A stretch of DNA of 64,000 bases from Sphingomonas glaciei (GTDB taxonomy: Bacteria > Pseudomonadota > Alphaproteobacteria > Sphingomonadales > Sphingomonadaceae), in NCBI RefSeq assembly GCF_023380025.1, contig NZ_CP097253.1:2017001-2081000 (forward strand), written 5' to 3'. The notes beneath the pieces are model-generated. The model was not told the DNA's origin, searched no databases, and saw only the letters and a program-made list of their open reading frames with translations. Numbering within the stretch: position 1 is the first letter of the stretch; each line of letters starts with the position of its first letter. Shown piece by piece: positions 2,895-57,205 of this stretch. The translations under genes were made by a program, and so were the position numbers.

Positions 2895-2911
2895 GAGGGC
2901 TCTAGGCCCTC
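2895..2911. terminator. Short hairpin between convergent yceD and ssb
   Basis: GAGGGC, a five-base loop TCTAG, then GCCCTC form a perfect six-base-pair stem in the 15-base gap between two convergent genes. It overlaps the ssb stop codon. There is no T-run on either side, so its strength as an intrinsic terminator is doubtful. Confidence 0.4.
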
Positions 2912-3458: not shown

Positions 3459-3488
3459 GCTTCACGACTCCTCTATCTTGAGGAGCAG

Positions 3489-5324: not shown

Positions 5325-5344
5325 TGGTGGCTGGGAAGCCCGAA

Positions 5345-5617: not shown

Positions 5618-5621
5618 TGCT

Positions 5622-5640
5622 GCAACTGATTATCAATAAC
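5622..5640 (-). promoter_or_regulatory. Fur-box-like operator before feoAB
   Basis: Read on the minus strand the site is GTTATTGATAATCAGTTGC, which matches 14 of 19 positions of the classical Fur box GATAATGATAATCATTATC, including the central TGATAATCA. It ends four bases before the upper feoA ATG. Binding of Fur (or an Irr/Mur relative) here would block transcription and possibly ribosome access. The match is seen. The binding is inferred. Confidence 0.65.
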
Positions 5641-5668
5641 AGCAGCGCGGGTCCAGTGGAGTTATTCC

Positions 5669-6325: not shown

Positions 6326-7209
6326 GCGGAAACCGACTTGGGGCCGGAGCCGCCCTCTTGCAAGCGAACCAGCACCAGCGCGACGGCAATGGCGGCGGCG
6401 CCGAGGAAATCGAGTGACGTCATGACTTCACCATAAGCGATCCACCCGATCGCTGCCGATACGGCCGGTTGGGTCAGCAGTGCGAGGCCGACAACCAGCG
6501 GCGGCACCTGTCCCAGCGCATAGACCAGGCACCCCTGCCCGACCACCTGGCTGCCGAGTGCGAGCAGCAAGAGGGGCGTCCAGGCGCTCGGCAGAATCGT
6601 TTCCCCCATCACCGCCGCGAACGGCAGCAGCATCGCGGCCCCGAAGGCGCTGGCGAGGATCAGCACGGGGAGCGGCTGCATCGAACCGCGCACCCGCTCC
6701 ACTGCGATCAGGTAGCCGGCGTAGAGCAGCCCGGCGAGCAAGGTCAGCAGGTCGCCGCGCAGATAACGGGCGCTCAGCTCGGCGCTTCCCGCCATCAGCA
6801 GCGCCGAGCCGAGCAGCGCGAGCAGCAGTGCCGCGCCCTGCAACCTGGTCGGCAGCCGCCGCGCCAGCCACAGCCCCCAGGCGGCAAAGGCAAAGCTCGC
6901 GATATTCCCGAACAGAGTCGCATTGCCGAGCTTGGTGAGGTGGATTCCGGCATGCCAGGCGGCAAGGTCGGCAGCGAAGAAGAAGGCGGCGACCGCGATC
7001 ACCCACGCCGCCGAGCGCCCGGGCCAGTGCGCCGGCTGGCCCATCGCCTTCGCCAGCACCACCAAAAAGGGCAGCGCCAGCGCCAGCCGCCAGAAGCCCG
7101 CCGCACTGGGTCCGACGTCGGAAAGCCGCACCATCCACGGCCCGAACGCCAGCGCGACATTGCCCAGCATCAGGATCGCAAAGGCGCGGGGAGAGACACG
7201 CTGGGTCAC
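6322..7209 (-). CDS. EamA/DMT family transporter
   Basis: This 295-residue inner-membrane protein has about ten hydrophobic segments in two EamA repeats (first from FAILMLGNVALAFGPWMVRL, second from LTLLAGLLYAGYLIAVERV), the layout of drug/metabolite exporters. The Pro-rich motif VGLALLTQPAVSAAIGWIAYGE near the end is typical of the family. The substrate cannot be read from the sequence. It is the first gene of a pair with COQ9, overlapping by four bases, and diverges from the Old Yellow Enzyme gene across about 120 bases. Confidence 0.85.
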   Translation of the reverse strand: MTQRVSPRAFAILMLGNVALAFGPWMVRLSDVGPSAAGFWRLALALPFLVVLAKAMGQPAHWPGRSAAWVIAVAAFFFAADLAAWHAGIHLTKLGNATLFGNIASFAFAAWGLWLARRLPTRLQGAALLLALLGSALLMAGSAELSARYLRGDLLTLLAGLLYAGYLIAVERVRGSMQPLPVLILASAFGAAMLLPFAAVMGETILPSAWTPLLLLALGSQVVGQGCLVYALGQVPPLVVGLALLTQPAVSAAIGWIAYGEVMTSLDFLGAAAIAVALVLVRLQEGGSGPKSVSA

Positions 7210-7330
7210 CGCGCCCTCCTACCGGGGCGCCCGGCTGGGTCCACCCCAGGCCGATCGCGCACGGCGATTGTTATGCGCCGGAGCCACCCTATCTGACCAG
7301 CCGTGCTCGTTCCCCAAGCAGGACCTTTTC

Positions 7331-8419
7331 ATGCCCGATCTGTTTGATCCCGTCGTTTTCGGCGACATCCATCTCGCCAACCGCATCGTCATGGCCCCGT
7401 TGACCCGCGGCCGCTCCGGCCCAACCGGCGTCCCGACCGAACTGGGGGTGGAATATTACCGGCAGCGCGCTGGGGCCGGGCTGATCATCTCCGAAGGCAC
7501 CGGGATCAGCCGCGAGGGCCTCGGCTGGCCCAACGCGCCGGGCCTGTGGACCGAGGCGCAGGTCGAAGGCTGGAAGCCGGTGACCGAGGCGGTGCACAGG
7601 GCGGGCGGCAAGATCGTCGCCCAGCTGTGGCACATGGGCCGGCTGGTGCATTCCAGCGTCACCGGCACCCAGCCGGTATCGGCCAGCGCCACCACCGCCC
7701 CGCACAAGGCGCATACCTACGAGGGCAAGAAGCCTTACGAAGAAGCGCGGGCGATCACCCACGACGACATCCAGCGCATCCTCGGCGATTTTGCGACAGC
7801 GACCCGCAACGCGCTTCGCGCCGGGTTCGACGGGGTGCAACTGCACGGCGCCAACGGCTATCTGATCGACCAATTCCTGCGCGACGGCACCAATCACCGT
7901 GACGACGATTACGGCGGCTCGGTCGAAAACCGCATCCGCCTGCTGCGCGAGGCGACCGAGGCGTTGATTTCGGAAGCCGGGGCCGGCCGCACCCTCGTCC
8001 GGCTGAGCCCGCTCGGGCTGGTCCAGGGCTGCGACGACAGCGATCCGCACGGACTGTTCATCGCCGCCGGCAAGGCGCTGGGCGAGCTGGGCATCGCCGC
8101 CATCGAACTGCGTGAGCCGGGCGCGCATTCGACCTTTGCGCCGAGCGACATTCCTCCGGTCAGCCCGCACATCCGCCCGCACTTCGAGGGCGGGATCATC
8201 CTCAACAGCGATTATGACGGACCGTCGGCGCGTGCCCGCCTCAGCGAAGGGGTGGCCGATGCGATCGCTTTCGGCCGGCCGTTCATCTCCAACCCCGACC
8301 TGCCCGATCGCCTCCGCAAGGAACTGACCCTCGCAGATCCCGACCCCAGCACCTTCTACACCGCGGGGCCCGAGGGCTACACCGATTATCCGGTCGCGGC
8401 GGAACAGGCGGCGGCCTGA
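7331..8419 (+). CDS. Old Yellow Enzyme family alkene reductase
   Basis: The 362-residue protein is an FMN- and NAD(P)H-dependent ene-reductase that reduces activated C=C bonds. The TIM-barrel motifs are intact: VFGDIHLANRIVMAPLTRGR at the start, then IVAQLWHMGRLVH. The catalytic-loop motif GFDGVQLHGANGYLIDQFL is followed by RDDDYGGSVENR, and AIAFGRPFISNPDLPDRL binds the phosphate of FMN. It resembles the NemA/morphinone-reductase branch used in xenobiotic or electrophile detoxification. An AGGA precedes the ATG by about eight bases. It is followed after 15 bases by the SOUL protein gene and may share its transcript. Confidence 0.93.
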   Translation: MPDLFDPVVFGDIHLANRIVMAPLTRGRSGPTGVPTELGVEYYRQRAGAGLIISEGTGISREGLGWPNAPGLWTEAQVEGWKPVTEAVHRAGGKIVAQLWHMGRLVHSSVTGTQPVSASATTAPHKAHTYEGKKPYEEARAITHDDIQRILGDFATATRNALRAGFDGVQLHGANGYLIDQFLRDGTNHRDDDYGGSVENRIRLLREATEALISEAGAGRTLVRLSPLGLVQGCDDSDPHGLFIAAGKALGELGIAAIELREPGAHSTFAPSDIPPVSPHIRPHFEGGIILNSDYDGPSARARLSEGVADAIAFGRPFISNPDLPDRLRKELTLADPDPSTFYTAGPEGYTDYPVAAEQAAA

Positions 8420-8434
8420 ATCTTTGTCGCTGTC

Positions 8435-9079
8435 ATGGCAAAAGCATCGACACCCAATCGCGTGAACTGGAAGGCCGCCGGCGCGGTCACGGCGGCAACC
8501 CTGGTCGGGCTCGGGATCGCCTACGTCCTGCGGGAAAAGGCGACGCCCGGACCCGATTACCGGGTGCTGGTCAGCGACGGCGACCTCCAGATCCGCAGCT
8601 ATCCGCCGATCAAGGTTGCCGAAGCGGTGGTCGCCGGGCCGCGCAAGGAGGCGCTGAGCGAAGGCTTTCAGATTCTCGCCGACTATATCTTCGCCAAGTC
8701 GCGCCCGGGCGAGAAACTGCCGATGACCGTTCCCGTGATGCAGGACGCCGGCAACCCCATGGGCAGCACGCCGCTGCGCTTCGATGACGAGGTCGAGGGC
8801 GGCTGGCGGGTCCGTTTCGTCATGCCGGAAGGCCATGACCTGCCCGAGCCGCCCGCTGGCGTCACTCTGATCGACCTGCCGGCCCGGCGGGTCGGTGCGG
8901 CAACCTTTCACGGCACCGCCCATGACGATCGCCTCAAGGCTGCCGAGGACCGCCTGCGCGGCTGGCTCGCCCGTCACGGCGAGGAATCGGTCAGGTGCGA
9001 GCCCGAATATGCGTTTTACAATTCGCCGATGATCCCGCCGCCGCTGCGCCGCAACGAGGTGTTGCTGGCGCTGACCTAG
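8435..9079 (+). CDS. SOUL haem-binding family protein
   Basis: The 214-residue protein has one N-terminal membrane anchor (VTAATLVGLGIAYVLRE, about residues 15-33). A SOUL domain follows, marked by YRVLVSDGDLQIRSYPPIKVAEAVV, the KLPMTVPVMQD motif and the end FYNSPMIPPPLRRNEVLLAL. Family members bind haem or other tetrapyrroles weakly. The bacterial function is not established. It would sit in the inner membrane facing the periplasm if the anchor is N-in. It lies 15 bases after the alkene reductase and converges on ftsK. Confidence 0.88.
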   Translation: MAKASTPNRVNWKAAGAVTAATLVGLGIAYVLREKATPGPDYRVLVSDGDLQIRSYPPIKVAEAVVAGPRKEALSEGFQILADYIFAKSRPGEKLPMTVPVMQDAGNPMGSTPLRFDDEVEGGWRVRFVMPEGHDLPEPPAGVTLIDLPARRVGAATFHGTAHDDRLKAAEDRLRGWLARHGEESVRCEPEYAFYNSPMIPPPLRRNEVLLALT

Positions 9080-9100
9080 GGGAACTGGCTGACGGCCGCC

Positions 9101-11446
9101 TCAGATCGGGTGGCCGTCGGTATCCATCAGCACTTCGCGTCTTCCGACATGGTCCGGTTGGCCGACCTTGCCGTCCTTTTCCATCCGCTCGATCAGCCGC
9201 GCCGCGCTGTTGTAGCCGATGCGTAGCTGGCGCTGGAGGTAGGAGGTCGAGGCCTTCTGGCTTTCGGCCACCACCTGGATCGCCTTGCGGTAGAGCTGGC
9301 TCTCGGGATCGTCGTCGCCGTCCGGCGCGCCGTCCAGCGCGAAGCCTCCGTCCTCGGGCTCCTCGGTGACCGCGCTGATGTAATCGGGCGTGCCCTGTTT
9401 GCGCCAATGGTCGGCGATCAGCCGCACCTCGTCGTCGCTGACGAACGGGCCGTGGACGCGCAGGATCTGCTTGCCGCCCGGCATGTAGAGCATGTCGCCC
9501 TTGCCCAGCAGCTGCTCCGCCCCTTGCTCGCCAAGGATGGTGCGGCTGTCGATCTTGCTGGTGACCTGGAAGCTGATCCGGGTCGGGAGGTTCGCCTTGA
9601 TGACGCCAGTGATGACGTCAACAGAAGGGCGCTGGGTCGCCATGATCAGATGGATGCCGGCCGCGCGGGCCTTTTGCGCGAGGCGCTGGATCAGGAATTC
9701 GACTTCCTTACCGGCGGTCATCATCAGGTCGGCAAGCTCGTCGACCACCACCACGATCTGCGGCAGGACCTCGTAATCCAGTTCCTCGGTCTCGTAGACG
9801 GGCTGCCCGCTGTCGGCGTCGTAGCCGGTCTGGACCTTGCGCCCGAGCTTGGTTCCGCGGCCCTTGGCCTCCAGCACCTTGTCGTTGAAGCTCTTGAGCG
9901 CGCGCACGCCAAGGCTCGCCATCATGCGATAGCGCTCCTCCATCTGCTCGACCGCCCACTTCAGCGCGCGGATCGCCTTGGGCGGCTCGGTGACCACCGG
10001 GGCGAGCAGGTGCGGGATACCGTCGTAGATGCTGAGTTCGAGCATCTTGGGGTCGATCATGATCATCCGGCACTGGTCCGGCCCCATCCGGTACAGCAGC
10101 GACAGGATCATGCAGTTGAGCCCGACCGACTTGCCCGAGCCGGTGGTGCCCGCGACCAGCAGGTGCGGCATCGGTGCGAGATCGGCGATGACCGGGTCGC
10201 CGGCGATGTTCTTGCCCAGCACCAAAGGCAGGCTCATCGCCTGGTCGGCAAAGGCCTGGCTGCCGATGAGTTCGCGCAACGCAACGCTCTCGCGCTTCGG
10301 GTTGGGCAGCTCGATCCCGATCACGCTGCGGCCTGGGATGGTCGCGACGCGCGCGGACAGCGCGCTCATGTTGCGGGCTATATCGTCGGCAAGCTGAATC
10401 ACGCGGCTGGCCTTGATGCCGCTCGCGGGCTCGAGCTCGTACATGGTGACCACCGGGCCGGGGCGGACCTCGACGATGTCGCCGCGGACGTGGAAGTCCT
10501 CCAGCACGCTTTCGAGCAGGCGGGCATTGCGCTCCAGCCCGGCCCGGTCGACCGGATTGCGCCCGGCGTCGGTCGGCGCGGTCAGCAGGTCGATCGGCGG
10601 CAGGGCATAGCTGTCGCCCAGCGCCAGGCTCTGCTGCTGGCTGGCCGCGCCCTTCCGCCCGCGCGGTTTGTCGACGACGGTCGCCGCCGCGACGATGCCG
10701 GTGCTCGGTTCCTTGACGTTGACTTCGGGACGCGAGCGCGGCGGGGCCACCGCCCGCCCTTCGTCGCGCTCAACCGCAGTCCGGCGCGGCGCCGGAGCGG
10801 CTTCGCCCTCGCGGCGGCGCAGACGGGTGGCGACGAACGCCTTTTCATCGGCATTGAGACCGAGCGCCAGGAACGCCAGCAGCAGCCCGCCAAGCCCGAG
10901 CAGCAGGATCAGCGCGATCCGGCTCGGGCCCGCGATGGCAGGTTCGGGGATCAGCGCCAGAAGCGCGTTCCAGGCCGTCGCGCCGGCCAGTCCGAGCACT
11001 CCGGCAAGCCCGGCCGGAAGGCCCGAAGCCACCGACTTGGTGGTGAGGCCAAGCGCCATGCCGATCAGCACCGCGCCCAGCGAGGCGACCAGCAGGGCGC
11101 GCCCGACCCGCCCGGTCGGACGATCGCCGAGCAGCCTGATTCCGGCTAGCGCCAGCACCGGCAGCAAGGTTACGCCGCCAGGGCCGAACAGCAGCAAGAG
11201 CAGGTCGCTGCCATAAGCGCCGGGCATTCCCAGCCAATTCTGCGCCGGCCCGCCCGCCGCGGTGCTCCAGCTCGGGTCGGTCCGCTGGTGGGTAAGGAGG
11301 GCGACCGCCAGGGCCAGCGCGACGGCAATCGCCACCACGCCGGTCAGCTTGACCGCTAGCGCGCGCACCGCGCCGCCCAGCCGGTCGCGCCAGTCGGGTT
11401 CCAGCTCGCGCCGGTCGGCTCGCGTGCGTGCTGCTGCCGTTGCCAT
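9101..11446 (-). CDS. ftsK: DNA translocase FtsK
   Basis: FtsK anchors at the division septum and pumps DNA to resolve chromosome dimers with XerCD at dif. The 781-residue protein has four N-terminal membrane segments (within about residues 30-200) and a linker of only about 100 residues. The alpha and beta motor domains follow, with Walker A GTTGSGKS near residue 434 and Walker [14 protein letters not shown]. The C-terminal gamma winged helix reads [22 protein letters not shown]. The single full-length gene suggests the normal FtsK, not a SftA-type relative. It diverges from the UbiH-like gene across 112 bases. Confidence 0.97.
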
Positions 11447-11558
11447 GTCCTAAGTGCCCGTCCCGCCCCGAGTGTGTGTTCGTTCCCTTATTGTGCCTGT
11501 GACCCGAGACCATGGTCAAGGATGACGAGGCGGTATCGAGCGCCTACATGCGGCTTCC

Positions 11559-12794
11559 ATGACACAGCAACAGCGCTCCCAGGCGGACGTCATCATCCTT
11601 GGCGGGGGAATGGTCGGCCTGTCGCTCGCCGCCGCGCTCGACAGTGCGGGCCTGACCTCGATCGTGGTCGACCCCGCCGATCCGTCCGAACGCCGGGATG
11701 TCGCCTTCGACGGGCGGACCACCGCCGTCTCTTCCTCCAGCATGCGGATGTTCCGGTCGATCGGCGTGCTCGACCATCTGCCCACGCCAGGTTGCCCGAT
11801 CCAGGCCATCCGCGTCGCCGACGGGCTGGCCCCGGGCGGGCTGACCTTCAAGCCTGGCGAAGATGGCGAGCCGCTGGGGGTGATGCACGAGAACCGCCAC
11901 CTGCGCGCCGCGCTCCACGACCGCGCGGAAGCCGGCGCGGCGATCGACCTGCGCTGGAAGAGTCCGGTCGCAGAAGTCGTGCGAGACGATTTCTCGGGCC
12001 GGGTCCGGCTGGCCGGCGGGGCGGAGCTGACCGCGCCGCTGATCGTCGGGGCCGAAGGACGGAACTCGCCTTCGCGCGACGCGGCTGGGATCCGCATGGC
12101 GCGCTGGTCGTACCGGCATACCGCGATCGTCTCGACCCTCGCCCACGAGCGGCCGCACGAGCAGATCGCGTACGAGATCTTCTATCCGGCCGGGCCATTC
12201 GCTCTGCTGCCGATGACCGACCTCGAGGACGGCACCCACCGATCGGCGATCGTGTGGTCGATTTCCAGCGACAAGGCGGCTGGCCTGCTCAAGCTCGACG
12301 ACTCTGACTTTGCCGCGGAGGCGCAGGCCGCGATGGGCGGTTTCTTGGGATCGATCCGCCTGCTGACGCCGCGCTCTTCCTATCCGCTCGGCTTCCACCA
12401 TGCGACGCGGATCACCGACACCCGCCTGGCGCTGGCCGGCGATGCGGCGCACGCCATCCATCCGATCGCCGGGCAAGGGGTGAACCTCGGCTTCCGCGAT
12501 GCGGCGGCACTGGCCGAAGTGCTGGTCGACGGCGCCCGGCTCGGCCTCGACCTCGGCGATGCGCAACTGCTCGCCCGCTACCAGCGCTGGCGGGCGCTCG
12601 ATGCGTTCAGCGTGGCGCTGGCGACCGACGGGCTGACCCGGCTCTACGGGGTGCCGGGGCGCACGGCATCGGCAGTGCGGCGCCTGGGAATGGGGATCGT
12701 TGATCGCCTGGGCCCGCTCAAGCACAAGCTCAACGCGGCGGCGCGGGGCAACAGCGGCGACCTGCCGCGGCTGCTGCTGGGCGAAGCGCTCTAA
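11559..12794 (+). CDS. UbiH/UbiF-type FAD-dependent monooxygenase
   Basis: The 411-residue protein is a class A flavin hydroxylase of the UbiH/COQ6 family that hydroxylates the ubiquinone ring. It has the N-terminal dinucleotide motif VIILGGGMVGLSLAAAL and the arginine-containing RRDVAFDGRTTAVSSSS segment. The second FAD motif LALAGDAAHAIHPIAGQG, then VNLGFRDAAALAEVL, is at about residues 290-325. UbiH, UbiF, UbiI and UbiL-type enzymes cannot be told apart here. COQ9 in the same window supports the pathway. It converges with the Lon-domain gene with only seven bases between stops. Confidence 0.9.
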   Translation: MTQQQRSQADVIILGGGMVGLSLAAALDSAGLTSIVVDPADPSERRDVAFDGRTTAVSSSSMRMFRSIGVLDHLPTPGCPIQAIRVADGLAPGGLTFKPGEDGEPLGVMHENRHLRAALHDRAEAGAAIDLRWKSPVAEVVRDDFSGRVRLAGGAELTAPLIVGAEGRNSPSRDAAGIRMARWSYRHTAIVSTLAHERPHEQIAYEIFYPAGPFALLPMTDLEDGTHRSAIVWSISSDKAAGLLKLDDSDFAAEAQAAMGGFLGSIRLLTPRSSYPLGFHHATRITDTRLALAGDAAHAIHPIAGQGVNLGFRDAAALAEVLVDGARLGLDLGDAQLLARYQRWRALDAFSVALATDGLTRLYGVPGRTASAVRRLGMGIVDRLGPLKHKLNAAARGNSGDLPRLLLGEAL

Positions 12795-12801
12795 AGCGTC
12801 G

Positions 12802-13446
12802 TCACTGCATCCGCGGGCTGACGTCGCCGCCGCCGCCCTGCGCCATGCGCAGGAACTGCATCAGCTGGATTAGCAATTCGGCCCGGCCGGTCAGGACGTC
12901 TTCCTCCAGCAGGGCCTGCTTGGCCCCGCCGTCGAACGGCGCGACCTGGGCGATGGCATTGACCAACATCTCGTCGTCGAGCCGCTCGACCGCTTCCCAG
13001 TCGACCATTAGCCCCATGGCATCACCCAAGAGGCGCGCCTCCTGCTCGACCGCGGCCCGCAGCACCGACGGCAGGGCATCGGGCTCAACCTCGGCATCGT
13101 CGCCGGGGATCACGTCGGCCTGGCGGTAGGGCGTGCCGACATCCGCCTCGGCGATCAGGCGGAACCGGGTGGTCCCCTGCAGCACGAGGTTGAAGCGTCC
13201 GTCGGCCAGCTCCTCCATTCCGACGATCTCGCCGATGCAGCCGACCCGGTACAGTTCGGGATTGCCCAGCCCGTCGTCGGGAGCGGCGCGGGGCTGGATC
13301 ATCCCGATCAGCCCGCCGCCGGCGACCGCATCCTCGACCATCTTGCGATAGCGCGGTTCGAAGATGTGCAGCGGCAGGTGGCTGCGCGGAAACAGGATCG
13401 CGCCGCCAAGCGGAAACAGGGGAAGCCGAAGGGGTGACCCGCTCAC
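12802..13446 (-). CDS. Stand-alone LON substrate-binding (N-terminal) domain protein
   Basis: The 214-residue protein consists of a Lon N-terminal domain (PLRLPLFPLGGAILFPRSHLPLHIFEPRYR at the start, MIQPRAAPDDGLGNPELYRVGCIGEI further on). There is no ATPase or protease part. Such proteins are taken to bind unfolded or regulatory proteins. The GTG start at 13446 overlaps the stop of the thioredoxin-family co-chaperone gene (GTGA). Translation is therefore coupled, which suggests the two act together in protein quality control. That link is inference. Confidence 0.9.
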   Translation of the reverse strand: MSGSPLRLPLFPLGGAILFPRSHLPLHIFEPRYRKMVEDAVAGGGLIGMIQPRAAPDDGLGNPELYRVGCIGEIVGMEELADGRFNLVLQGTTRFRLIAEADVGTPYRQADVIPGDDAEVEPDALPSVLRAAVEQEARLLGDAMGLMVDWEAVERLDDEMLVNAIAQVAPFDGGAKQALLEEDVLTGRAELLIQLMQFLRMAQGGGGDVSPRMQ

Positions 13447-14348
13447 GTGAACAGCACGGCGGACAGGCGGCGGCGCTGCGCGCGTGCCCACGGATCCTCC
13501 AGCCCCTGCGCCTCCAGCAATTGCAGGAAGCGGGTGCGGGCGGCGCCCTCGTTCCAGTCGCGGTCGCGGCGAACGAGGTCGAGCAGGGCGTCAGCCGCCT
13601 CGTCCCGCCTCCCGGCCGCCATCTGCGCATTGGCCAGTTCCAGCCGCGCTTCGTGATCGTCGGGGTTCGCCGCCAGCCGCTGCTCCAGCCCAGACGTGTC
13701 GGCTGCGGGAATGACCGCGATGTCGAGCGCGGCGCGGGCGCGCGCCACGGCCGAATCGCCAGCCGCCGATTCGGGCAGGCCATCGAGCAGCGCCCGGGCT
13801 TCATCGGGGCGATCCAGCGCAATCAGCGCGCGGGCGAGGCCGCCGACGACCTCGGGGTGATCGGAATCCATCTCGGCGATCTGGCGAAAGATGTTCTCGG
13901 CCCGCTCCGCATCGCCCGAGGCGAGCACTTCCTCGCCCATCGCGATCAGCGGCTCGATCTCGGCTTCCAGCGCCTGCGCTTCGCCCTTGACCGGAAGCTG
14001 GCCGAGCAACTGGTCGAGCACCCGCTTGATCTGCCCCTCACTGCGATATTGGGTCAGGTCGGCGACCGGCTGCCCGCCGAAGATCGCGTAGACCGTTGGG
14101 ATCGAGCGGATCTGGAATTGCGCGGCGACGACCTTTTCCTCGTCGACATCGACCTTGACCAGGACCACACCCTTGTCGGCATAGTCGGCGGCAACCTTTT
14201 CCAGCACCGGCCCGAGCTGCTTGCACGGCCCGCACCACTCCGCCCAGAAATCGAGGATCACAAGCTTGTCGAGCGACGGCTGGAGCACCCGCTCCTGGAA
14301 GCTGCGGATCGCTTCCCGCTCCTCAGCGCTCATTCCCAGTGTCGCCAC
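13443..14348 (-). CDS. Thioredoxin-family co-chaperone of the YbbN/CnoX type
   Basis: The 301-residue product has a thioredoxin domain at about residues 10-120 with active site WAEWCGPCK (CGPC at 39-42) and cis-Pro loop SIPTVYAIFGG. Helical TPR-like repeats follow up to the C-terminus (for example LEQRLAANPDDHEARLELAN), as in YbbN/CnoX. E. coli YbbN has lost the first cysteine. This copy keeps both and could be redox active. I chose the GTG at 14348, giving MATLGMSAEERE and an AGAGG about 12 bases upstream. The open frame continues to 14432 with a basic stretch that does not look like protein. Confidence 0.88.
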   Translation of the reverse strand: MATLGMSAEEREAIRSFQERVLQPSLDKLVILDFWAEWCGPCKQLGPVLEKVAADYADKGVVLVKVDVDEEKVVAAQFQIRSIPTVYAIFGGQPVADLTQYRSEGQIKRVLDQLLGQLPVKGEAQALEAEIEPLIAMGEEVLASGDAERAENIFRQIAEMDSDHPEVVGGLARALIALDRPDEARALLDGLPESAAGDSAVARARAALDIAVIPAADTSGLEQRLAANPDDHEARLELANAQMAAGRRDEAADALLDLVRRDRDWNEGAARTRFLQLLEAQGLEDPWARAQRRRLSAVLFT

Positions 14349-14512
14349 GCTTGCCCGTTTCCTCTTGGTAAGTGATGCAGCGCATATGGGCCGACCGACC
14401 CGATGCGCCAAGTCTCTCAACCCGGAAGCCACTGAAAGGGTTGCCAGCCCCGAAAGCCGTTGCTAACGGGCCCCCACCCAGACGGCGCGAGCCGCCGTCG
14501 CATGGCGCCAGA

Positions 14513-14587
14513 GCGGGCGTAGCTCAGGGGTAGAGCACAACCTTGCCAAGGTTGGGGTCGAGGGTTCGAATCCCTTCGCCCGCTCCA
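14513..14587 (+). tRNA. tRNA-Gly (anticodon GCC)
   Basis: A complete cloverleaf is visible: acceptor GCGGGCG paired with CGCCCGC, D arm GCTC/GAGC and anticodon stem CAACC/GGTTG around the loop TTGCCAA. The T loop is TTCGAAT and an encoded 3' CCA ends at 14587. Length is 75 bases including CCA. Confidence 0.97.
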
Positions 14588-14651
14588 GCGATCCTTCCGA
14601 TCGTCACTTTCAGCGCCTTATCTCACCTTATTTGCGAGATGCAGCCGGCCC

Positions 14652-15461
14652 TCAGCGAGCGAGCAGCGCCGCGCTTTCGATCTGGTCGAGTGCGCGGTGC
14701 GCAGCGACGTAGCTGCGCGCGCTCGCCACCCAGGCCGGCGCGGCGGTGATTCCGGGCAGCCGCATCGCTTCGGCCAGCGCCTGGTCGACCTGGCCGGCGT
14801 TGAGGCGGGCGACCGCACGGTCATAGGTGGCGATCGGCCGCTGGCTCGGCTGGTCGGCGCGGCGGATCGTGACGAGATCTCCCATCTGCCGCCGCATCGT
14901 CTGCCACAGATTGTCGCTTTCGGGCGCCGCCTTGAGCCTGGGCGCCAGGGTCGTGAAGTCGGCGGCGAGTTGGTCCAGCCGCACCGGCCGCCGCGAGGAG
15001 GTAACGATGGTGGCGACCGCCTGCGGATGGGTGGGGCCGAACCGCTCGGTCAGCAGCGGCTCGAGATAGCCGAGCGCCACCCCGCGATCGATCGCCCGGC
15101 GAGCAGCGAAAGCGACCAGCAGCGCATCTGCGCGCCCGGCCGAGCTTTCCGCCCGGCTGGTAGCGCTTTCGACCCGCGCCAGCCGTGCTTCCAGCGTCGC
15201 GACCCGCGCTTCGGTCGCCGGCAGTGCGTCAACCGGGATGGTGGTCGCGAGGGCCGGCGAAGCCGGAGGAAGGGTGGCAACTGCACGCGGCTGCGCTTCG
15301 GCTAGAGCGTCCGCCGGCGGCTGCAACCCCGCCAGCTGCGCGGCCTGCGGAAAGCGGTTCAGAGCCCAGATCGCCGCCGCGCCGCCGAGCAGCAGGAGCA
15401 GGAGCGCGCCAAGCAGGATCGCACTGAGGCTTGTCCGCCGGTTCGCCGCGCTGCTGGTCAT
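14652..15461 (-). CDS. Mitofilin-like membrane protein downstream of hemD
   Basis: The 269-residue protein has a cytosolic start, one membrane anchor (LSAILLGALLLLLLGGAAAIWAL in about residues 12-35) and a long periplasmic part. That part holds a predicted coiled coil (EARVATLEARLARVESATSRAES) and a helical C-terminus (ATYDRAVARLNAGQVDQALAEAMRL). This matches the alphaproteobacterial mitofilin/HemX-like proteins found after hemD. The ATG at 15461 overlaps the hemD stop (ATGA). Mitofilin homologues shape inner-membrane architecture. A haem role is suggested only by position. Sequence identity in this family is low, so the assignment rests on layout and context. Confidence 0.75.
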   Translation of the reverse strand: MTSSAANRRTSLSAILLGALLLLLLGGAAAIWALNRFPQAAQLAGLQPPADALAEAQPRAVATLPPASPALATTIPVDALPATEARVATLEARLARVESATSRAESSAGRADALLVAFAARRAIDRGVALGYLEPLLTERFGPTHPQAVATIVTSSRRPVRLDQLAADFTTLAPRLKAAPESDNLWQTMRRQMGDLVTIRRADQPSQRPIATYDRAVARLNAGQVDQALAEAMRLPGITAAPAWVASARSYVAAHRALDQIESAALLAR

Positions 15462-16105
15462 CGGCCCTGTTCCTTGCACAGCTTGGCGGCGAGGGAAAGC
15501 AAGGCGGGGTCGTTGGGAGCGTCCACCGCTTCGCAGCGCGCCCAGCCGGAACCGCAGGCCGCCGCCGCGGCCAGGCTAATCGCAGCCACCCGCACCCGCT
15601 CGCGCGCGACGTCGACCTCGGACAGGCGGCGTCCGGCGGCGGGCGAGTGGACCACCGCTACCGTATCCTCGATCAAGCTGGCCTCGGGAAGCGTAAGCGG
15701 CGCCATGCGGTAGACCGCGACCGAGGTGATCGACTGCCTGGCCCCGACCGGCTCGATCCGCTCCTCGCCGGCAAGATGAAGCAGCCTCAGTCCTTCCGGC
15801 AAGCGCTCGAGCAGCCCGTCAACACCGCGCTCACCGACCGTCAGCACCTCCAGCCCCGCGGCACGCGCGGCGGCGGCCGATGCCGCGCCCACCGCATGGA
15901 CGGGGAGGGCTGGAAGGCTGCCGCCATGGCGAACCGCATTGGCGCTGGTCACCAGCAGCGCATCGAACGGCCCGGCCGGAAGCATCCAGGGGACCGGCTC
16001 TGCCGCGAACAGGGGATGGCGGCGGACCTCGAACCCCAGCGCCGCCGCCCGTGCCGCCGTGGCACTGGCGCCGGGCTCGGGACGAAGGACGACCAGGGGT
16101 CTCAC
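15458..16105 (-). CDS. hemD: Uroporphyrinogen-III synthase
   Basis: HemD closes hydroxymethylbilane to uroporphyrinogen III. The 215-residue protein begins [23 protein letters not shown] and has the [15 protein letters not shown] segment (family position of the S/T-S-xN motif) near residue 50. A late segment [19 protein letters not shown] matches the family's HSP.(S/A) motif. HemD sequences are poorly conserved, but the position directly after hemC is decisive. The start is GTG at 16105, overlapping the hemC stop by four bases. Confidence 0.88.
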
Positions 16106-17025
16106 GCCGGGTTGAACAGCAACCTGACCTCGGCCGGCGCGCGGCCCAGCAGCTCGGCGGCGAGGGCCAATCCGGCCTCCTCTTCCTCTCCCGGGGCCGC
16201 GCGCACGTCACCCGCGACATGGGCGGCACCATCGCTGCTCAGCAGTTCCGCGCGCAGCCACAGGCTGTCGTCGCCCTCGATCAAGCCCAGCGCCGCGACG
16301 GGCGAATGGCAGGAGCCCCCGACCCCGCGGCAGAACGCCCGCTCGGCGGTCACCGCGCGGCGGGTCGGCCCGTCGTCGATCGCCCTGAGCAAGGCGCGGG
16401 TCTCCGCGTCGTCCTTGCGGCATTCGATCGCGATCGCGGCCTGGCCGGGCGCGGGGAGGAATTCGTCGATCTCGATCGCTTGCCCTTCCTCGATCCCGAG
16501 GCGGTCGAGCCCGGCGGCGGCCAGGAAGGTCGCTTCGTAATTGCCGCTGGCGATATGGTTGAGGCGGGTCGCGACATTGCCGCGCATGATCGACACCTGC
16601 AGGTCGGGGCGCCGGCGAAGCAATTGCGCGGTCCGCCGCGGCGACGAGGTCCCGACCTTCGCGCCCTGGCTCAGCGCATCAATCGAGGTCGCCCCGATCA
16701 GCCGGTCGCGGACGTCGGCGCGGGGCAGGAAGGCCGCGATGCACAGATTGTCCGGCCGCTCGCTCTCGACATCCTTGCAGCTGTGCACCGACAATTGGGT
16801 CGTTCCGCCGAGCAGGAACTGGTCGAGCTCCTTCGTCCACAGCGCCTTGCCGCCGATCTCCGCCAGCGCGCGATCCTGCACCTCGTCGCCGGTCGTGCGC
16901 ACTTCGTGGAGCAGGACGGAGCCGGCCTCCCACCCATGCGCCGCTTCGAGCGCGGCGGCGGCGGTGCGGGCCTGGGCAAGCGCCAGCGGGGAGGAGCGGG
17001 TTCCGACAAGCAGGCGCGGGGTCAT
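16102..17025 (-). CDS. hemC: Hydroxymethylbilane synthase (porphobilinogen deaminase)
   Basis: HemC joins four porphobilinogens into hydroxymethylbilane. The 307-residue protein has the family landmarks: [15 protein letters not shown] at the start, the [19 protein letters not shown] loop, and [11 protein letters not shown]. The cofactor-binding Cys lies in [14 protein letters not shown] at about residue 238. The usual SMKD element reads SVHSCKDV here, Met replaced by Cys. The ATG at 17025 gives the standard N-terminus. The longer open frame to 17421 overlaps tsaD and is rejected. It heads hemC-hemD-mitofilin-like and diverges from tsaD across 48 bases. Confidence 0.96.
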
Positions 17026-17073
17026 GGCCCCACTCTTGCCAGAGCGGCAAGCGAACCGCAAAGGCGGCGGCAG

Positions 17074-18105
17074 ATGGCGTTGATCCTCGGTCTTGAATCC
17101 TCCTGCGACGACAGCGCGGTGGCGCTTGTCACCAGCGACCGGCGCATCCTGGCGCAGCGCGTGGTTGGGCAGAACCAGGCCCACGCCCCGTTCGGCGGCG
17201 TGGTGCCGGAGATTGCCGCGCGCGCCCATGTCGAGGTGCTTCCGGGCCTGGTCCGCGAGGTGCTGGACGACGCCGGAATCGCGCTGGGCGAGGTGGATGC
17301 GGTCGCCGCCACCGCCGGGCCGGGCCTGATCGGCGGGGTGATGGTCGGGCTGCTGACCGCCAAGGGGCTGGCACTGGCCTCGGGCAAGCCGCTGGTCGCG
17401 GTCAACCACCTCGAAGGCCATGCCCTGTCGCCGCGGCTGGTCGATCCGGCGCTAGGCTTTCCCTACCTGCTGCTGCTGGCCAGCGGCGGCCATTGCCAGT
17501 TGCTCGAGGTGCGCGGGGTCGGCGACTATCGCCGCCTGGCGACCACTATCGACGATGCGGCAGGCGAGGCGTTCGACAAGGCGGCCAAGCTGCTCGGCCT
17601 GCCCTATCCAGGCGGTCCGGCAATCGAGGGACTGGCGCGCGAGGGTGACGCCAAGGCGGTGCCCCTGCCGCGGCCCTTGGTCGGCAGTCCCGAGCCGCAT
17701 TTCTCCTTCGCCGGGCTCAAGAGCGCGGTGCAGCGCGCGGTCACCGCCGGCACACACCGGCCCGCAGACATCGCCGCCAGCTTCCAGCAGGCGGTGGTCG
17801 ACTGCTTCGTCGACCGCACCCGCCGCGCCCTGGCGCAGAGCGACGCGCCGACTTTGGTGGTGGCCGGCGGGGTCGCCGCCAATTCCGCCGTCCGCTCGGC
17901 GCTGCAAGGCTTGGCGCAAGAACAAGGCCGCGCCTTCTCGGTCCCGCCCGGCTGGCTGTGCACCGACAATGCCGCCATGATCGCCTGGGCGGGTGCCGAG
18001 CGGTTCGCCGCCGGACTGGTCGACGGCCTCGACGCCCCGGCGCGGGCCCGTTGGCCGCTCGACGAAGGCGCCGAAGCGGTCCGCGGGGCAGGAGTGAAGG
18101 CATGA
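17074..18105 (+). CDS. tsaD: tRNA threonylcarbamoyladenosine synthesis protein TsaD
   Basis: TsaD transfers the threonylcarbamoyl group to A37 of ANN-decoding tRNAs together with TsaB and TsaE. The 343-residue protein shows [19 protein letters not shown], the metal-binding [11 protein letters not shown] at about residues 110-120, [10 protein letters not shown], and the C-terminal [14 protein letters not shown] final metal-binding region [12 protein letters not shown] follows. Length matches the family. The stop overlaps the gpsA start as ATGA, the usual tsaD-gpsA order in Alphaproteobacteria. Confidence 0.97.
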
Positions 18106-19079
18106 AGATCGGAGTGATCGGCGGCGGCGCCTGGGGCACTGCCCTGGCGCAAGTGGCGTCGCAGGGTGGCGAGACGCTGTTGTGGTCGCGTGAGCTCGAA
18201 GTCGCCGCCAGCATCGCCGCGACCCGTGAAAACACCCTGTTCCTGCCCGGCGTCCCGCTGTCCGAAGCGATCCGCCCGACCACCGATCTTGCCGACCTGA
18301 GCGAATGCGACGCCTGGCTGGTGGTCACCCCGGCGCAGCACATGCGGCGGGTGCTGGAGGCGGCACCGGGCTGTCCGGGTGCGCTTTTGCTCTGCTCCAA
18401 GGGGATCGAGGAAGCGAGCGGGCAATTGCTCCACCAAGTGGCGCGCGAAGCCTGTCCCGGCGCCTCGGTTATGGTGCTGTCGGGCCCGACCTTTGCGCAT
18501 GAAGTGGCGGCCGGACTGCCCACCGCACTGACGCTCGCCGCCGAGATCGAGGCCGAGGCCGAAGCGGTCCGCACCCGTCTCGCCCGCCCCGCCTTCCGGA
18601 TCTACCTCAGCGACGATGTCGCCGGGGCGGAGGTCGGCGGGGCGGTCAAGAACGTGCTGGCGATCGCCTGCGGTGTGGTCGAAGGGCGCGGCCTCGGCCA
18701 GAACGCCCGCGCCGCCCTGATCGCACGTGGTTTCGCCGAAATGACCCGCTTCGGGCTGGCGCGGGGAGCGCGGGCCGAGACGCTGGCCGGACTGTCGGGG
18801 CTCGGCGACCTCGTCCTCACCTGCTCGTCCACCAGCAGCCGCAATTTCTCGCTCGGCAAGGGCCTAGGCGAAGGGCGTCAGGCCGCTGAGCTGATGGCCG
18901 ATCGCCGCACCGTCGCCGAAGGCGCGTTTACCGCGCCGGTTCTGCGCCGGCTGGCCGAGGCCGAGGGCGTGGAAATGCCGATCGTGGCGGCGGTCGACGA
19001 CCTGCTCGCCGGGCGGGCCGATGTCGATGCCGTCCTCGGGCGGCTACTCAGCCGTCCCCTACGCCCCGAAAGGACCTAG
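18102..19079 (+). CDS. gpsA: NAD(P)+-dependent glycerol-3-phosphate dehydrogenase
   Basis: GpsA reduces dihydroxyacetone phosphate to sn-glycerol-3-phosphate for phospholipid synthesis. The 325-residue protein has the Rossmann motif [20 protein letters not shown] and the [13 protein letters not shown] stretch. The catalytic lysine region is [17 protein letters not shown]. The C-terminal signature is [21 protein letters not shown]. It overlaps tsaD by four bases. Its stop overlaps the stop of the small convergent DUF1674 gene by three bases (19077-19079 against 19076-19078). Confidence 0.97.
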
Positions 19080-19243
19080 AAATCCCACGCAATTCCGCTC
19101 TTTTCCCAATCACCGTAGCGCACCGGGTCGAGCCGCGGCTTGTCCCCGGCGGGCGGCGGCGCTGGCTCGACCGGCTCGGGCTCGGGCACCGGCGGCGACT
19201 TGCTGAGATAGGCGGGCGGCTGAAGATTGGCTGGGCGCGGCAT
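19076..19243 (-). CDS. DUF1674 protein (succinate dehydrogenase assembly factor 4-like)
   Basis: The 55-residue protein is Pro-rich (PVPEPEPVEPAPPPAGDKPR) and ends with the DUF1674/SDHAF4 signature [19 protein letters not shown]. In mitochondria and yeast (Sdh8) this family protects the flavoprotein subunit of succinate dehydrogenase before complex assembly. The ATG at 19243 is the nearest start. The frame stays open to 19549, but the added part overlaps rsmB and does not look like protein. The end overlaps the gpsA stop codon tail to tail. Confidence 0.82.
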   Translation of the reverse strand: MPRPANLQPPAYLSKSPPVPEPEPVEPAPPPAGDKPRLDPVRYGDWEKSGIAWDF

Positions 19244-19260
19244 GAAGGGGGAGATGGGCG

Positions 19261-20490
19261 TTGAGGCAGCCGCAGCCAAGGGGTCCCGAAGCCGGGGTGG
19301 GGGCACGCCGCTCGGCGCTGCGCATCCTCGACCGGGTGGTGCGCAGCGGCCAGACGATGGATTCGGCGGCGCAGGGCCTGCAGAAGCTCGAACCCGCTGA
19401 CCAGGCACTGGCGCTAGCGATTGCCGGCGAAACGCTGCGCCGCCTGCCTCTGCTCGACCGGCTGATCGACGGCGCGACCCGCCAGATCCTGCCCGACGAT
19501 GCCAAGGCGCGGATGGTGCTGCGCCTCGCGCTGGCGCAGCGGATCGCACTTAAGGTCCCCGACCACGCGCTGGTCGCCACCGCCCTCCCGCTGGTCGAGG
19601 GCGGCCCCAGGCGGCTGGTCCACGGCGTGCTCGGCACCCTCCTGCGCGGCGCGCTGCCCGAGGCAGACGAGGGCGCCTTGCCGCAAGCGGTAGAGAACCG
19701 CTGGACCGCGGCATGGGGGCAGCAAGCCGTCGACGCCGCCCGACGCGCCATCGTCCGCCGCCCGCCACTTGACCTCAGTTTCCGTAGCCACGACGAAGCA
19801 CTGTCCTTTGCCGGGGCCGAAGGCGGCATCAGCCTGGCCGAGCGCCACGTTCGCCTGTCCGACACCCGGCCCGTCACCGGCCTCCCCGGCTTTGCCGAGG
19901 GGCGCTGGTGGATTCAGGATCTGTCCTCGACCCTGCCCGCGCGGATGATCCCGGCCGATGCTTTTCGCGTGCTCGACGCCTGCGCCGCGCCGGGTGGCAA
20001 GACCCTGCAGATCGCCGCAGCCGGCCACCGCACCTTCGCGCTCGACCGCTCCGAAAGTCGTCTGGCGCGACTTCGCGCCAATCTCGCCCGGACCGGCCTC
20101 CAGGCGCAGATCGTCACCGAGGACGTGCTCGGCTACAATCCCGACGAGCCGTTCGACGCGGTTCTGCTCGATGCGCCCTGTTCCGCCACCGGCACTTTCC
20201 GCCGGCACCCCGAGGTTCTGCTCCGCGCGTCCGACCGGATCATCGCCGAAAGCGCCGAATTGCAGGGCCGCCTGCTGACCGCCGCAGCGGCCTGGGTGCG
20301 TCCGGGCGGAAGCCTGGTCTATGCGGTGTGCAGCCTCGAACCGCAGGAAGGCGAGGAGATCATTGCCGAATTCCTCCGCGCGTCTCCCGACTACAGCCTC
20401 GCCGAACAGCGGCGCGTGCTTCCCGGCGAAGTGGAGGAAGAGGGCGGAATGGACGGCTTCTTTGCGGCTCGCCTTGTGCGGGCGGGTTAG
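19261..20490 (+). CDS. RsmB/NOP family rRNA (cytosine-5) methyltransferase
   Basis: The 409-residue protein has an N-terminal NusB-like helical domain (residues about 15-140) and a SAM-dependent methyltransferase domain. That domain has VLDACAAPGGKTLQIAAAG, the DAPCSATGTFRRHPE motif with the releasing Cys, and YAVCSLEPQEGE with the catalytic Cys. This is the RsmB layout, which methylates C967 of 16S rRNA in E. coli. The start appears to be TTG at 19261, seven bases after an AGGGGGAG. GTG at 19297 is an alternative that removes 12 residues. It precedes rpe by 18 bases. Confidence 0.9.
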   Translation: MRQPQPRGPEAGVGARRSALRILDRVVRSGQTMDSAAQGLQKLEPADQALALAIAGETLRRLPLLDRLIDGATRQILPDDAKARMVLRLALAQRIALKVPDHALVATALPLVEGGPRRLVHGVLGTLLRGALPEADEGALPQAVENRWTAAWGQQAVDAARRAIVRRPPLDLSFRSHDEALSFAGAEGGISLAERHVRLSDTRPVTGLPGFAEGRWWIQDLSSTLPARMIPADAFRVLDACAAPGGKTLQIAAAGHRTFALDRSESRLARLRANLARTGLQAQIVTEDVLGYNPDEPFDAVLLDAPCSATGTFRRHPEVLLRASDRIIAESAELQGRLLTAAAAWVRPGGSLVYAVCSLEPQEGEEIIAEFLRASPDYSLAEQRRVLPGEVEEEGGMDGFFAARLVRAG

Positions 20491-55461: not shown

Positions 55462-56315
55462 GCGGTGAGCAACTCCCGAAGCTCGGCATCATGTTCGCGC
55501 GGGGCTGGCTCGCAGAACAAGAGTTCGAACGCGGCGGCGGCCTGCGCGACGAGCATGATCAGGCCGTCGAGGGCGACAAGGCCACAATCCCGCGCCTGTC
55601 GAATGAGATCGGTCTCGACCGGGTCATAGACCATGTCGAACACGATTGATCCCGGCGCCATTTCGCTCAGGTCGACAACCAGAGGAGGTTGGCCACGCAT
55701 GCCGAGCGGAGAGGCATTGACCAGCAGCGAAGGGTGATCCCCCGCTTTCCCTGCCCGTGACAGGTCGCTGATCGGCGCGGAAAGATGTTCGGCATCCACG
55801 GGGTCAAAGCGCCGCCTAAAGGCAATCGCACTGTCGTAGGTCCGTCCGTAAGAGACTAGCGTGCTCGGAGCGGGGCCTTGCAGAAGCGCGACGGTAGCGG
55901 CGGCGGCAGCACCACCCGTCCCGATCACGCTTGCGGTGAAGAAGTCTTCGCCCTTAAGCCACGCCTGCAAGGGCTCGCGCACCCCCAGCAGGTCCGTATT
56001 ATGCCCTCGCAGGCGGGCATCCTCCCCCACACGAGTGATTGTGTTCGTGGCGCCGACTGACCTGACCTCGGGCGACACCTCAGCAAGGTGCGCAAGCGCC
56101 TCGACCTTGAGCGGCATGGTGACATTGCAGCCGGCCCACAATGGATCGGCTCGCCGTCGCTCAAGATAGGCAGGCAGCTGGTCGGCGCTCACGCGAGTCG
56201 TGCCATAATCGTAGGTAAGCCCCAGCTTGCCGAGCCAGAAGCGATGGATCAGCGGCGACTTGCTGTGGCTGACCGGATCGCCGATCACCTCCGCATAAGG
56301 CACCCCTGCCGTCAT
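55458..56315 (-). CDS. aroE: Shikimate dehydrogenase
   Basis: AroE reduces 3-dehydroshikimate with NADPH. The 285-residue protein has VIGDPVSHSKSPLIHRFWLG and the conserved Lys in GCNVTMPLKVEALAHL. GATNTITRVGEDARLRGHNTDLLG follows. The dinucleotide motif is VIGTGGAAAAATVALL, and ASPLGMRGQPPL lies near the end. The ATG at 56315 overlaps the maf stop by four bases. The longer open frame to 56468 runs into maf. Confidence 0.95.
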   Translation of the reverse strand: MTAGVPYAEVIGDPVSHSKSPLIHRFWLGKLGLTYDYGTTRVSADQLPAYLERRRADPLWAGCNVTMPLKVEALAHLAEVSPEVRSVGATNTITRVGEDARLRGHNTDLLGVREPLQAWLKGEDFFTASVIGTGGAAAAATVALLQGPAPSTLVSYGRTYDSAIAFRRRFDPVDAEHLSAPISDLSRAGKAGDHPSLLVNASPLGMRGQPPLVVDLSEMAPGSIVFDMVYDPVETDLIRQARDCGLVALDGLIMLVAQAAAAFELLFCEPAPREHDAELRELLTA

Positions 56316-56896
56316 GACGCCAGAACGCCCCGCTGCCGCAGCGCGACCAGCAGCGGCAGCAGGGGCAGGCCGAGGATGGTGAAGTGATCGCCATCGATAC
56401 TCTCGAACAATTGCACGCCTGGCCCTTCGAGCCGGAACACGCCGACGCAATAGCTGACCTCGGGCCAATCCGCCTCGAGATAGCTATCGATGAACTCCTC
56501 GCTCAGCGGCCGGACCTTCAGCCGGGCGCGCGCGGCGTGGCTCCAGACGTTCTCACCGCGCTCGACCAGCACCGCCGCGCTCGTCAGCTCCATCACCTTG
56601 CCCGAAAAGAAGCGCAGGTGCTCGGCCGCGGTCTCCCGCCCGGCCGGCTTGTCGAAGCGGCGACCCTCGATGCTGACCAAGCTGTCGCTTCCGATCACCA
56701 AGGCATCTGGCCGTCGCGTCGACACCGCCATCGCCTTGGCCTCGCCCAGCGCCACCGTTAGCGCCGCATCGTCGCCCGCGAAGCCGGTCTTGAGCGCCGC
56801 CTCGTCGACGCCCGGCGCTTCGGCGGCATAGGCGACCCCAGCATTGGCCAGCAGGGTGCCGCGGATCGGCGAGGTCGAGGCCAGGATCAGGGTCAC
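56312..56896 (-). CDS. maf: Maf-type nucleotide pyrophosphatase
   Basis: The 194-residue protein hydrolyses modified or non-canonical nucleoside triphosphates. It has LILASTSPIRGTLLANAGVA, the acidic EAPGVDEAALKTGF, PDALVIGSDSLVSIEGRRF, and FSGKVMELTSAAVLV. The YceF (m7GTP) and YhdE (dTTP/UTP) branches cannot be separated safely. The start is GTG at 56896. It leads the minus-strand operon and flanks the candidate replication origin. Confidence 0.93.
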   Translation of the reverse strand: MTLILASTSPIRGTLLANAGVAYAAEAPGVDEAALKTGFAGDDAALTVALGEAKAMAVSTRRPDALVIGSDSLVSIEGRRFDKPAGRETAAEHLRFFSGKVMELTSAAVLVERGENVWSHAARARLKVRPLSEEFIDSYLEADWPEVSYCVGVFRLEGPGVQLFESIDGDHFTILGLPLLPLLVALRQRGVLAS

Positions 56897-57205
56897 GCCA
56901 CCAGTTCCATGTTCGTTCCTGTGGAGAAATCGTCCTCAACCCCTAGCGCGGCTCGGGGGATGGACCAACCGGATCCGTTTCAAAGGGTTCGGTAAGACTC
57001 CGCCACGACGATTATCCACGGTGGAAAAGGTCATCCACAAGGCTGTGGATTACGGGAATCAACGGCCGCGACTCGCCGGTCTTGCGAGAAGGGCGGTTTG
57101 CGGCCACCTGTTGGCAACCGTGGGACGGCCGCTTATTCCCCAGGTTCGGCCGGCCATCTAACTCCAACTACCTTTTTTAAGAATCTATAAGAGAAAGAGA
57201 TAAGG
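56897..57205. other. Candidate chromosomal replication origin (oriC)
   Basis: This 309-base gap between divergent maf and hemE has four near-consensus DnaA boxes, each one or two bases from TTATCCACA: TTATCCACG (57012-57020), TCATCCACA (57031-57039), TAATCCACA on the minus strand (57044-57052) and TTCTCCACA on the minus strand (56920-56928). GANTC sites occur at 56996, 57056, 57070 and 57181. The hemE end (about 57160-57205) is A/T-rich, including CCTTTTTTAAGAATC, a plausible unwinding zone. Flanking genes run away on both sides. In Caulobacter and several other Alphaproteobacteria the origin lies next to hemE. No gene is seen inside. Confidence 0.75.
57012..57052. promoter_or_regulatory. Cluster of three DnaA-box-like 9-mers
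   Basis: TTATCCACG (57012, plus), TCATCCACA (57031, plus) and TAATCCACA (57044-57052, minus) each differ from TTATCCACA at one base. They lie within 41 bases. This density is not expected by chance in high-GC DNA and suits DnaA binding. The fourth box at 56920 (TTCTCCACA, minus) differs at two bases. Confidence 0.75.

What the first reader, a model, noticed from the sequence alone, without database searches (positions are those of the whole stretch)
56897..57205. Likely chromosomal origin between maf and hemE
Seen: four DnaA-box-like 9-mers (three within 41 bases), four GANTC sites within about 190 bases, an A/T-rich edge next to hemE, and a complete change of gene direction: all genes from ptsN to maf point left, and all from hemE to mnmG point right. 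Known: the Caulobacter origin and several other alphaproteobacterial origins lie beside hemE, and GANTC is the CcrM methylation site. Inference: this 309-base gap is oriC. No dnaA gene is nearby, which is normal for this class.
Basis: partly seen in the sequence, partly recalled or inferred. Interest (0 to 1): 0.75.

Follow-up and report, generated by a model that had tools for sequence, protein, structure and literature searches.

The report
Chromosome replication origin beside hemE
The gap between two housekeeping genes, maf and hemE, is very probably where this sphingomonad bacterium starts copying its chromosome; the site is of a standard kind for its group, with a few local twists such as the absence of a gene usually found next to it.

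Summary
The 309-base maf-hemE gap (56897-57205; genome 2073897-2074205 of one 2,880,162-bp contig) holds four one-mismatch DnaA boxes. Of 148 such boxes in the whole genome, these form the only cluster of three or more within 300 bp. The most A/T-rich 40-mer of the window is at its hemE edge. Independent markers agree: parS and parAB lie about 7 kb away, a dif-like site lies nearly opposite, FtsK-type words change strand near it though not exactly at it, and dnaA is 806 kb away with no strand change seen there. The layout recurs across Sphingomonadaceae, and hemE-linked oriC predictions for the family are published (PMC4741004). So: a new member of a known kind. Unlisted details: the usual neighbour COG1806/ppsR was found in 0 of 41 genus genomes; the best conserved element is not a DnaA box but TGTTGGCAA, whose TTGGCA core is 17 bp before a TAANCC-like block, most likely the hemE promoter; a DnaA-like box overlaps a GANTC site in 19 of 32 aligned gaps; no CtrA consensus site was found.

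The parts
56897..57205 (.). oriC, maf-hemE intergenic gap
   Evidence: only cluster of three or more one-mismatch DnaA boxes within 300 bp in the genome; a maf-hemE gap was found in 106 of 110 loci examined, the 4 others having no maf match
56920..56928 (-). DnaA box A, TTCTCCACA; best conserved box
   Evidence: one mismatch or fewer in 30 of 32 aligned gaps
56943..56949 (+). conserved CTAGCGC block, function unknown
   Evidence: genus alignment; exact in some but not all genus gaps
56996..57000 (.). GANTC site (GACTC)
   Evidence: kept in 3 of 32 aligned gaps
57012..57020 (+). DnaA box B, TTATCCACG
   Evidence: one mismatch or fewer in 11 of 32, two or fewer in 24 of 32
57031..57039 (+). DnaA box C, TCATCCACA
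   Evidence: one mismatch or fewer in 4 of 32; weakly conserved at this column
57044..57052 (-). DnaA box D, TAATCCACA; in 11 of 32 aligned gaps TGATTCACA
   Evidence: one mismatch or fewer in 8 of 32, two or fewer in 23 of 32; overlaps a GANTC site in 19 of 32, not in this genome
57056..57060 (.). GANTC site (GAATC)
   Evidence: kept in 5 of 32
57070..57074 (.). GANTC site (GACTC) inside conserved CGACTCGC
   Evidence: kept in 29 of 32
57109..57117 (+). TGTTGGCAA; probable -35 region of the hemE promoter
   Evidence: exact in 30 of 30 fetched genus gaps and 25 of 76 others, against 0.1 of 76 in shuffles
57134..57139 (+). probable -10 region (TATTCC), 17 bp after TTGGCA
   Evidence: spacing without indel in the genus alignment
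57137..57142 (+). TCCCCA, match to the Caulobacter W-box (weak DnaA site)
   Evidence: 27 in 30 genus gaps, 4.65 in shuffles on average, maximum 9; consensus read in PMC4285127
57156..57195 (.). A/T-rich stretch, probable unwinding element
   Evidence: most A/T-rich 40-nt place in the window
57181..57185 (.). GANTC site (GAATC)
   Evidence: kept in 12 of 32
56312..56896 (-). maf
   Evidence: PF02545
57206..58255 (+). hemE
   Evidence: PF01208

Best explanation
The gap is the chromosomal replication origin, oriC, of a sphingomonad, of the hemE-linked alphaproteobacterial kind. DnaA binds boxes A to D, probably helped by weaker sites such as TCCCCA, and builds a filament towards hemE that melts the A/T-rich stretch 57156-57195. 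DnaB is loaded there and two forks leave towards a dif-like site 1.38 and 1.50 Mb away. TGTTGGCAA, with 17 bp from its TTGGCA core to a TAANCC-like block (TATTCC here), is most likely the promoter of hemE, so origin and promoter are interleaved and transcription runs through the unwinding element. GANTC sites would be methylated by the genome's CcrM-type enzyme and mark whether the origin has just been copied. Shown by computation: the box cluster and its uniqueness, the A/T-rich edge, conservation, the parS/parAB neighbourhood, a strand switch within about 20 kb in most tests. Inferred: DnaA binding, melting site, promoter, methylation and its role.
For: Only cluster of three or more boxes in the genome; 0 of 2000 shuffles reach four. 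The only perfect parS lies 6,917 bp downstream of the hemE start and the only two-mismatch one is 1.7 kb nearer. Perfect parS occurs in 24 of 41 genus genomes; in the 20 with parS and hemE on one contig each parS lies 4,951-7,544 bp downstream of the hemE start. gidB, parA, parB follow. GGGCAGGG is the most biased 8-mer on the far arms: 59 leading, 7 lagging. Dif-like site at 695,487, arms 1,501,598 and 1,378,564 bp. Samples nearest dnaA keep forward-dominant GGGNAGGG on both sides. Divergent genes. Recurrent box spacing among 106 gaps: A-B 92 in 11, A-C-like 110 in 10, A-D 123/124 in 19. One RAMA-domain protein in the genome. Papers, passages only: PMC4741004, PMC1914354, PMC8116508.
Against: With GGGCAGGG alone the best change-point is 2,086,150-2,099,887, support interval 2,078,143-2,111,567, which misses the gap by about 4 kb. 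The length-6 word set puts the minimum 105 kb away. Plain GC skew is weak and irregular. GGGNAGGG is only modestly commoner than its reversed control (645 against 495), and the arms used for training were chosen. No perfect DnaA box, and boxes B-D vary among relatives; 6 of 106 gaps have no one-mismatch box in the last 340 nt. No CtrA or IHF consensus match in the gap. The DnaA-trio test was weak: 1 of 30 genus gaps has three in a row.
Confidence: 0.95

Rival explanations
1. The gap is only a divergent promoter region for maf and hemE; the true origin lies nearby, such as in 2,078,000-2,112,000.
For: The GGGCAGGG change-point interval lies just right of the gap; a promoter-like element is the best conserved piece.
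Against: No other cluster of three or more one-mismatch boxes within 300 bp anywhere in the genome; GGGCAGGG is sparse near the gap, 45 events in 524 kb, so the interval is coarse; box spacings recur here in other genera.
Confidence: 0.03
2. The origin is beside dnaA near base 1 of the contig.
For: The dnaA domain is at 515-994.
Against: One one-mismatch box in the first 20 kb; GGGNAGGG is forward-dominant in the samples on both sides (2,736,001-2,756,000 and 1-20,000); the parS sites are at hemE.
Confidence: 0.01
3. The gap is oriC, but TGTTGGCAA is not a promoter part: it is the site of an unnamed origin-binding protein that regulates initiation.
For: Exact in 30 of 30 genus gaps, more than I would expect of an ordinary -35 box; its reverse complement TTGCCAACA shares 6 of 9 letters with the DnaA box (own count).
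Against: A fixed 17-bp distance from TTGGCA to a TAANCC-like block, and a place 72-123 bp before the aligned hemE start in the genus, are what a promoter predicts.
Confidence: 0.15

Closest known systems
Predicted oriC of Sphingopyxis granuli TFA and other Sphingomonadaceae (PMC4741004, passages read)
   Same: Close to hemE, several putative DnaA boxes, a putative DUE, conserved gene cluster
   Different: Here no COG1806/ppsR gene lies between maf and the origin, as it does in the one other sphingomonad I checked (L080); the Sphingopyxis granuli locus itself was not examined
Caulobacter crescentus Cori (PMC1914354, PMC4285127, PMC4468827, passages read)
   Same: Beside hemE, weak rather than perfect DnaA boxes, W-box-like TCCCCA
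   Different: Cori lies between hemE and COG1806 and is reported with five CtrA sites and one IHF site; here no CtrA or E. coli-type IHF consensus match, and maf is the neighbour
Novosphingobium sp. PP1Y predicted origin (PMC4059872, passages read)
   Same: Close to hemE, three DnaA boxes
   Different: There described as also close to a dnaA gene; here dnaA is 806 kb away

Membership tests
hemE-linked alphaproteobacterial oriC | Intergenic region directly upstream of hemE | tested here: met
hemE-linked alphaproteobacterial oriC | Cluster of DnaA boxes not matched elsewhere in the genome | tested here: met
   only cluster of three or more among 148 one-mismatch boxes of the genome; masked bases cannot be scanned
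hemE-linked alphaproteobacterial oriC | COG1806 (ppsR/RP001) as the other flank | tested here: not met
   PF03618 in 0 of 41 genus genomes, 31 of them at least 90% complete; control rings in Caulobacter. 73 of 76 other gaps exceed 600 bp; the one checked, L080, encodes PF03618 there. Wolbachia also has another flank (PMC1914354), so the feature is usual, not absolute
hemE-linked alphaproteobacterial oriC | A/T content above genome average, with an A/T-rich stretch | tested here: met
   gap GC 0.56, last 50 bases 0.30; unmasked genome samples 0.60-0.69
hemE-linked alphaproteobacterial oriC | parAB/parS near by | tested here: met
hemE-linked alphaproteobacterial oriC | Strand-bias switch at the site | tested here: inconclusive
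   within 3.5-19 kb for 4 of 5 word sets, 105 kb off for one; the single-word support interval misses the gap by about 4 kb
hemE-linked alphaproteobacterial oriC | Replication initiates here in cells | not testable with these tools
   needs marker frequency or an origin plasmid assay
Caulobacter-type CtrA-controlled origin (Cori) | CtrA sites TTAA-N7-TTAA | tested here: not met
   0 in the window gap and 0 in 30 genus gaps; with one mismatch 0 and 2, against 2.4 in shuffles
Caulobacter-type CtrA-controlled origin (Cori) | IHF site | tested here: inconclusive
   E. coli-type consensus (recalled): 0 exact, and 4 with one mismatch in 30 genus gaps against 2.65 in shuffles; the Caulobacter IHF sequence was not scanned
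Caulobacter-type CtrA-controlled origin (Cori) | W-boxes TCCCCA | tested here: met
   27 in 30 genus gaps against 4.65 in shuffles, 1 in the window gap; Cori is reported with five
DnaA-trio unwinding element | Three or more trios in a row beside the boxes | tested here: inconclusive
   1 of 30 genus gaps has three; mean run 1.73, above the largest of 50 shuffle means (1.57), in the expected orientation; 1.40 against 1.56 in the other; trio consensus recalled

The most novel reading that the evidence does not exclude
In this sphingomonad genus CtrA control of the origin has been replaced by a methylation-linked switch: DnaA box D overlaps a CcrM-type (GANTC) site in 19 of 32 aligned gaps, a second GANTC is kept in 29 of 32, and the invariant TGTTGGCAA is the site of an as yet unnamed origin factor, so that hemimethylation after replication directly lowers DnaA binding, as SeqA and Dam do in E. 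coli by a different protein.
Probability: 0.1. Interest if true: 0.55.

Novelty: new member of a known kind. Interest (0 to 1): 0.22.

Why it matters
It places the origin of a one-contig genome whose numbering starts at dnaA, 806 kb away, which matters for growth-rate estimates from read depth and for building origin plasmids in sphingomonads. It also gives a testable map of this origin: four boxes, a GANTC position kept in 29 of 32 gaps, a promoter-like element exact in 30 of 30 genus gaps, and no CtrA consensus sites.

Tried and rejected
Plain GC skew of 20-kb samples: too noisy to place the origin. That table also left out window bases 57001-57050, so its box counts miss boxes B-D; include them. 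GANTC cluster as stand-alone evidence: rejected, since 10 starts in the sampled genome, the gap among them, have four or more within about 190 bp. DnaA-trio test: inconclusive. CtrA and E. coli-type IHF sites: no more than expected. Origin at dnaA: rejected. One 20-kb sample with low GC first looked like an island; the value comes from masked bases, so the idea was dropped. One search handled reverse-strand loci wrongly and listed them as lacking maf; one search corrected this: 106 of 110 loci gave a gap, and L090, L109, L122 and L129, which have no maf match, were dropped. Genus loci: 41 genomes have hemE but only 30 loci were returned, the best-scoring ones. Literature search for TGTTGGCAA: 279 papers, of which I saw the 10 listed, unrelated by title and abstract start. 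PMC11514494 (passages) concerns CcrM in Agrobacterium and did not bear on this gap.

Full report
Observation. Four boxes occurred in 0 of 2000 dinucleotide shuffles and three or more in 1 of 2000. The whole genome has 71 such boxes on + and 77 on -; this is the only cluster of three or more within 300 bp, and randomly placed points gave a cluster of four in 0 of 2000 trials and of three or more in 31 of 2000. The box is not enriched genome-wide: the reversed control pattern is commoner, 91 and 91. Four GANTC sites are not rare on their own (91 of 2000 shuffles; 10 starts in 1,144,000 sampled bases, the gap included), but the mean over the 30 genus gaps fetched is 4.97 against 1.40 in shuffles.

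Position on the chromosome. The genome is one contig of 2,880,162 bases; the gap is at 2073897-2074205. A perfect parS lies at 2081123 and a two-mismatch one at 2079386, with no other place at up to two mismatches. gidB, parA and parB follow. A perfect parS was found in 24 of 41 genus genomes. In the 20 with parS and hemE on one contig, each parS lies 4,951-7,544 bp downstream of the hemE start; the other four have them on different contigs. The single dif-like match, three mismatches from a recalled pattern, is at 695,487, giving arms of 1,501,598 and 1,378,564 bp. dnaA is at the contig start.

Strand bias. GGGNAGGG is forward-dominant in the samples from 0 to 0.67 Mb and reverse-dominant from 0.72 Mb, so it changes where the dif-like site is; it is mixed and sparse from about 1.73 to 2.32 Mb. 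Among all 8-mers on the far arms the most biased was GGGCAGGG, the FtsK-orienting type of word (name recalled): 59 leading, 7 lagging; the arms had been defined. With this word alone the best change-point is 2,086,150-2,099,887, support interval 2,078,143-2,111,567, which just misses the gap. Sets of biased words of length 8, 7, 6, 5 and 4 put the minimum at 2,078,770, 2,092,829, 1,968,665, 2,077,586 and 2,077,586. So the switch supports the neighbourhood, not the exact base; the box cluster picks the gap within it.

Conservation. I aligned the 30 genus gaps returned (of 41 genomes with hemE) plus L075 and L113. One mismatch or fewer: box A 30 of 32, box B 11, box C 4, box D 8; two or fewer: box B 24, box D 23. 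Over 106 of 110 loci, the last 340 nt before hemE hold 224 boxes against 3.6 in shuffles; 6 of 106 have none; 42 of 106 have a perfect one; the commonest spacings include 92 and 110 between opposite boxes and 123/124 between like ones.

Unlisted elements. TGTTGGCAA (57109-57117) is exact in 30 of 30 genus gaps and in 25 of 76 others, and occurs once on both strands of 800,000 sampled bases outside the gap. Its TTGGCA is followed after 17 bp by TAANCC-like letters, TATTCC here, with no indel in the genus alignment. Fixed spacing between two short blocks, 72-123 bp before the aligned hemE start in the genus, fits a housekeeping promoter; that is my reading, without transcript data. In 30 of 76 other loci the best match has three or four mismatches, which is what shuffles give; these include Novosphingobium and Erythrobacter records. 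The GANTC at 57070 is kept in 29 of 32. Box D overlaps a GANTC site in 19 of 32 gaps, though not in this genome. The genome has one RAMA-domain match; in the control set only Caulobacter rings; that CcrM bears this domain is recalled. CtrA consensus sites are absent.

Missing neighbour. In Caulobacter and Rickettsia the origin lies between hemE and COG1806 (PMC1914354, passages). In 73 of 76 gaps outside the fetched genus set the maf-hemE distance exceeds 600 bp; in the one I checked (L080) it holds a PF03618 gene pointing to maf. The 30 genus gaps are 271-325 bp and PF03618 was found in 0 of 41 genus genomes. The simplest reading is that the gene beside the origin was lost in this genus and the origin stayed.

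Literature. PMC4741004 (passages) predicts oriC close to hemE for Sphingopyxis, says the same was predicted for most Sphingomonadaceae in DoriC, and notes that DoriC had placed the S. alaskensis origin elsewhere, which its authors would move to hemE. [quoted passage not shown] PMC4059872 (passages) predicts a hemE-side origin for Novosphingobium PP1Y. I saw no experimental proof for a sphingomonad in the listings; these cover only part of the literature.

Verdict. Very probably a genuine, ordinary oriC of the known hemE-linked kind, with a few genus-level details worth a test.

Noticed in passing
window 56897-57205 and genus loci: COG1806/ppsR (PF03618), the usual neighbour of alphaproteobacterial origins, was found in 0 of 41 genus genomes.
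   Followed up: partly
window 57109-57139: TGTTGGCAA, with 17 bp from its TTGGCA core to a TAANCC-like block, is more conserved than any DnaA box; probably the hemE promoter.
   Followed up: partly
window 57044-57052 and aligned relatives: DnaA box D carries an overlapping GANTC site in 19 of 32 aligned gaps but not in this genome.
   Followed up: partly
L111, L124: Records titled Microvirga sp. SRT01 and Bacillus sp. 2B10 carry sphingomonad-like hemE and maf loci; the record names may be wrong.
   Followed up: no
G000:C1:695487-695506: Single dif-like site where GGGNAGGG changes strand, the probable terminus.
   Followed up: partly
L061:1005-3485: An ORF with Asp/Gly-rich repeats like those of calcium-binding repeat proteins (resemblance by eye, not scanned).
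   Followed up: no
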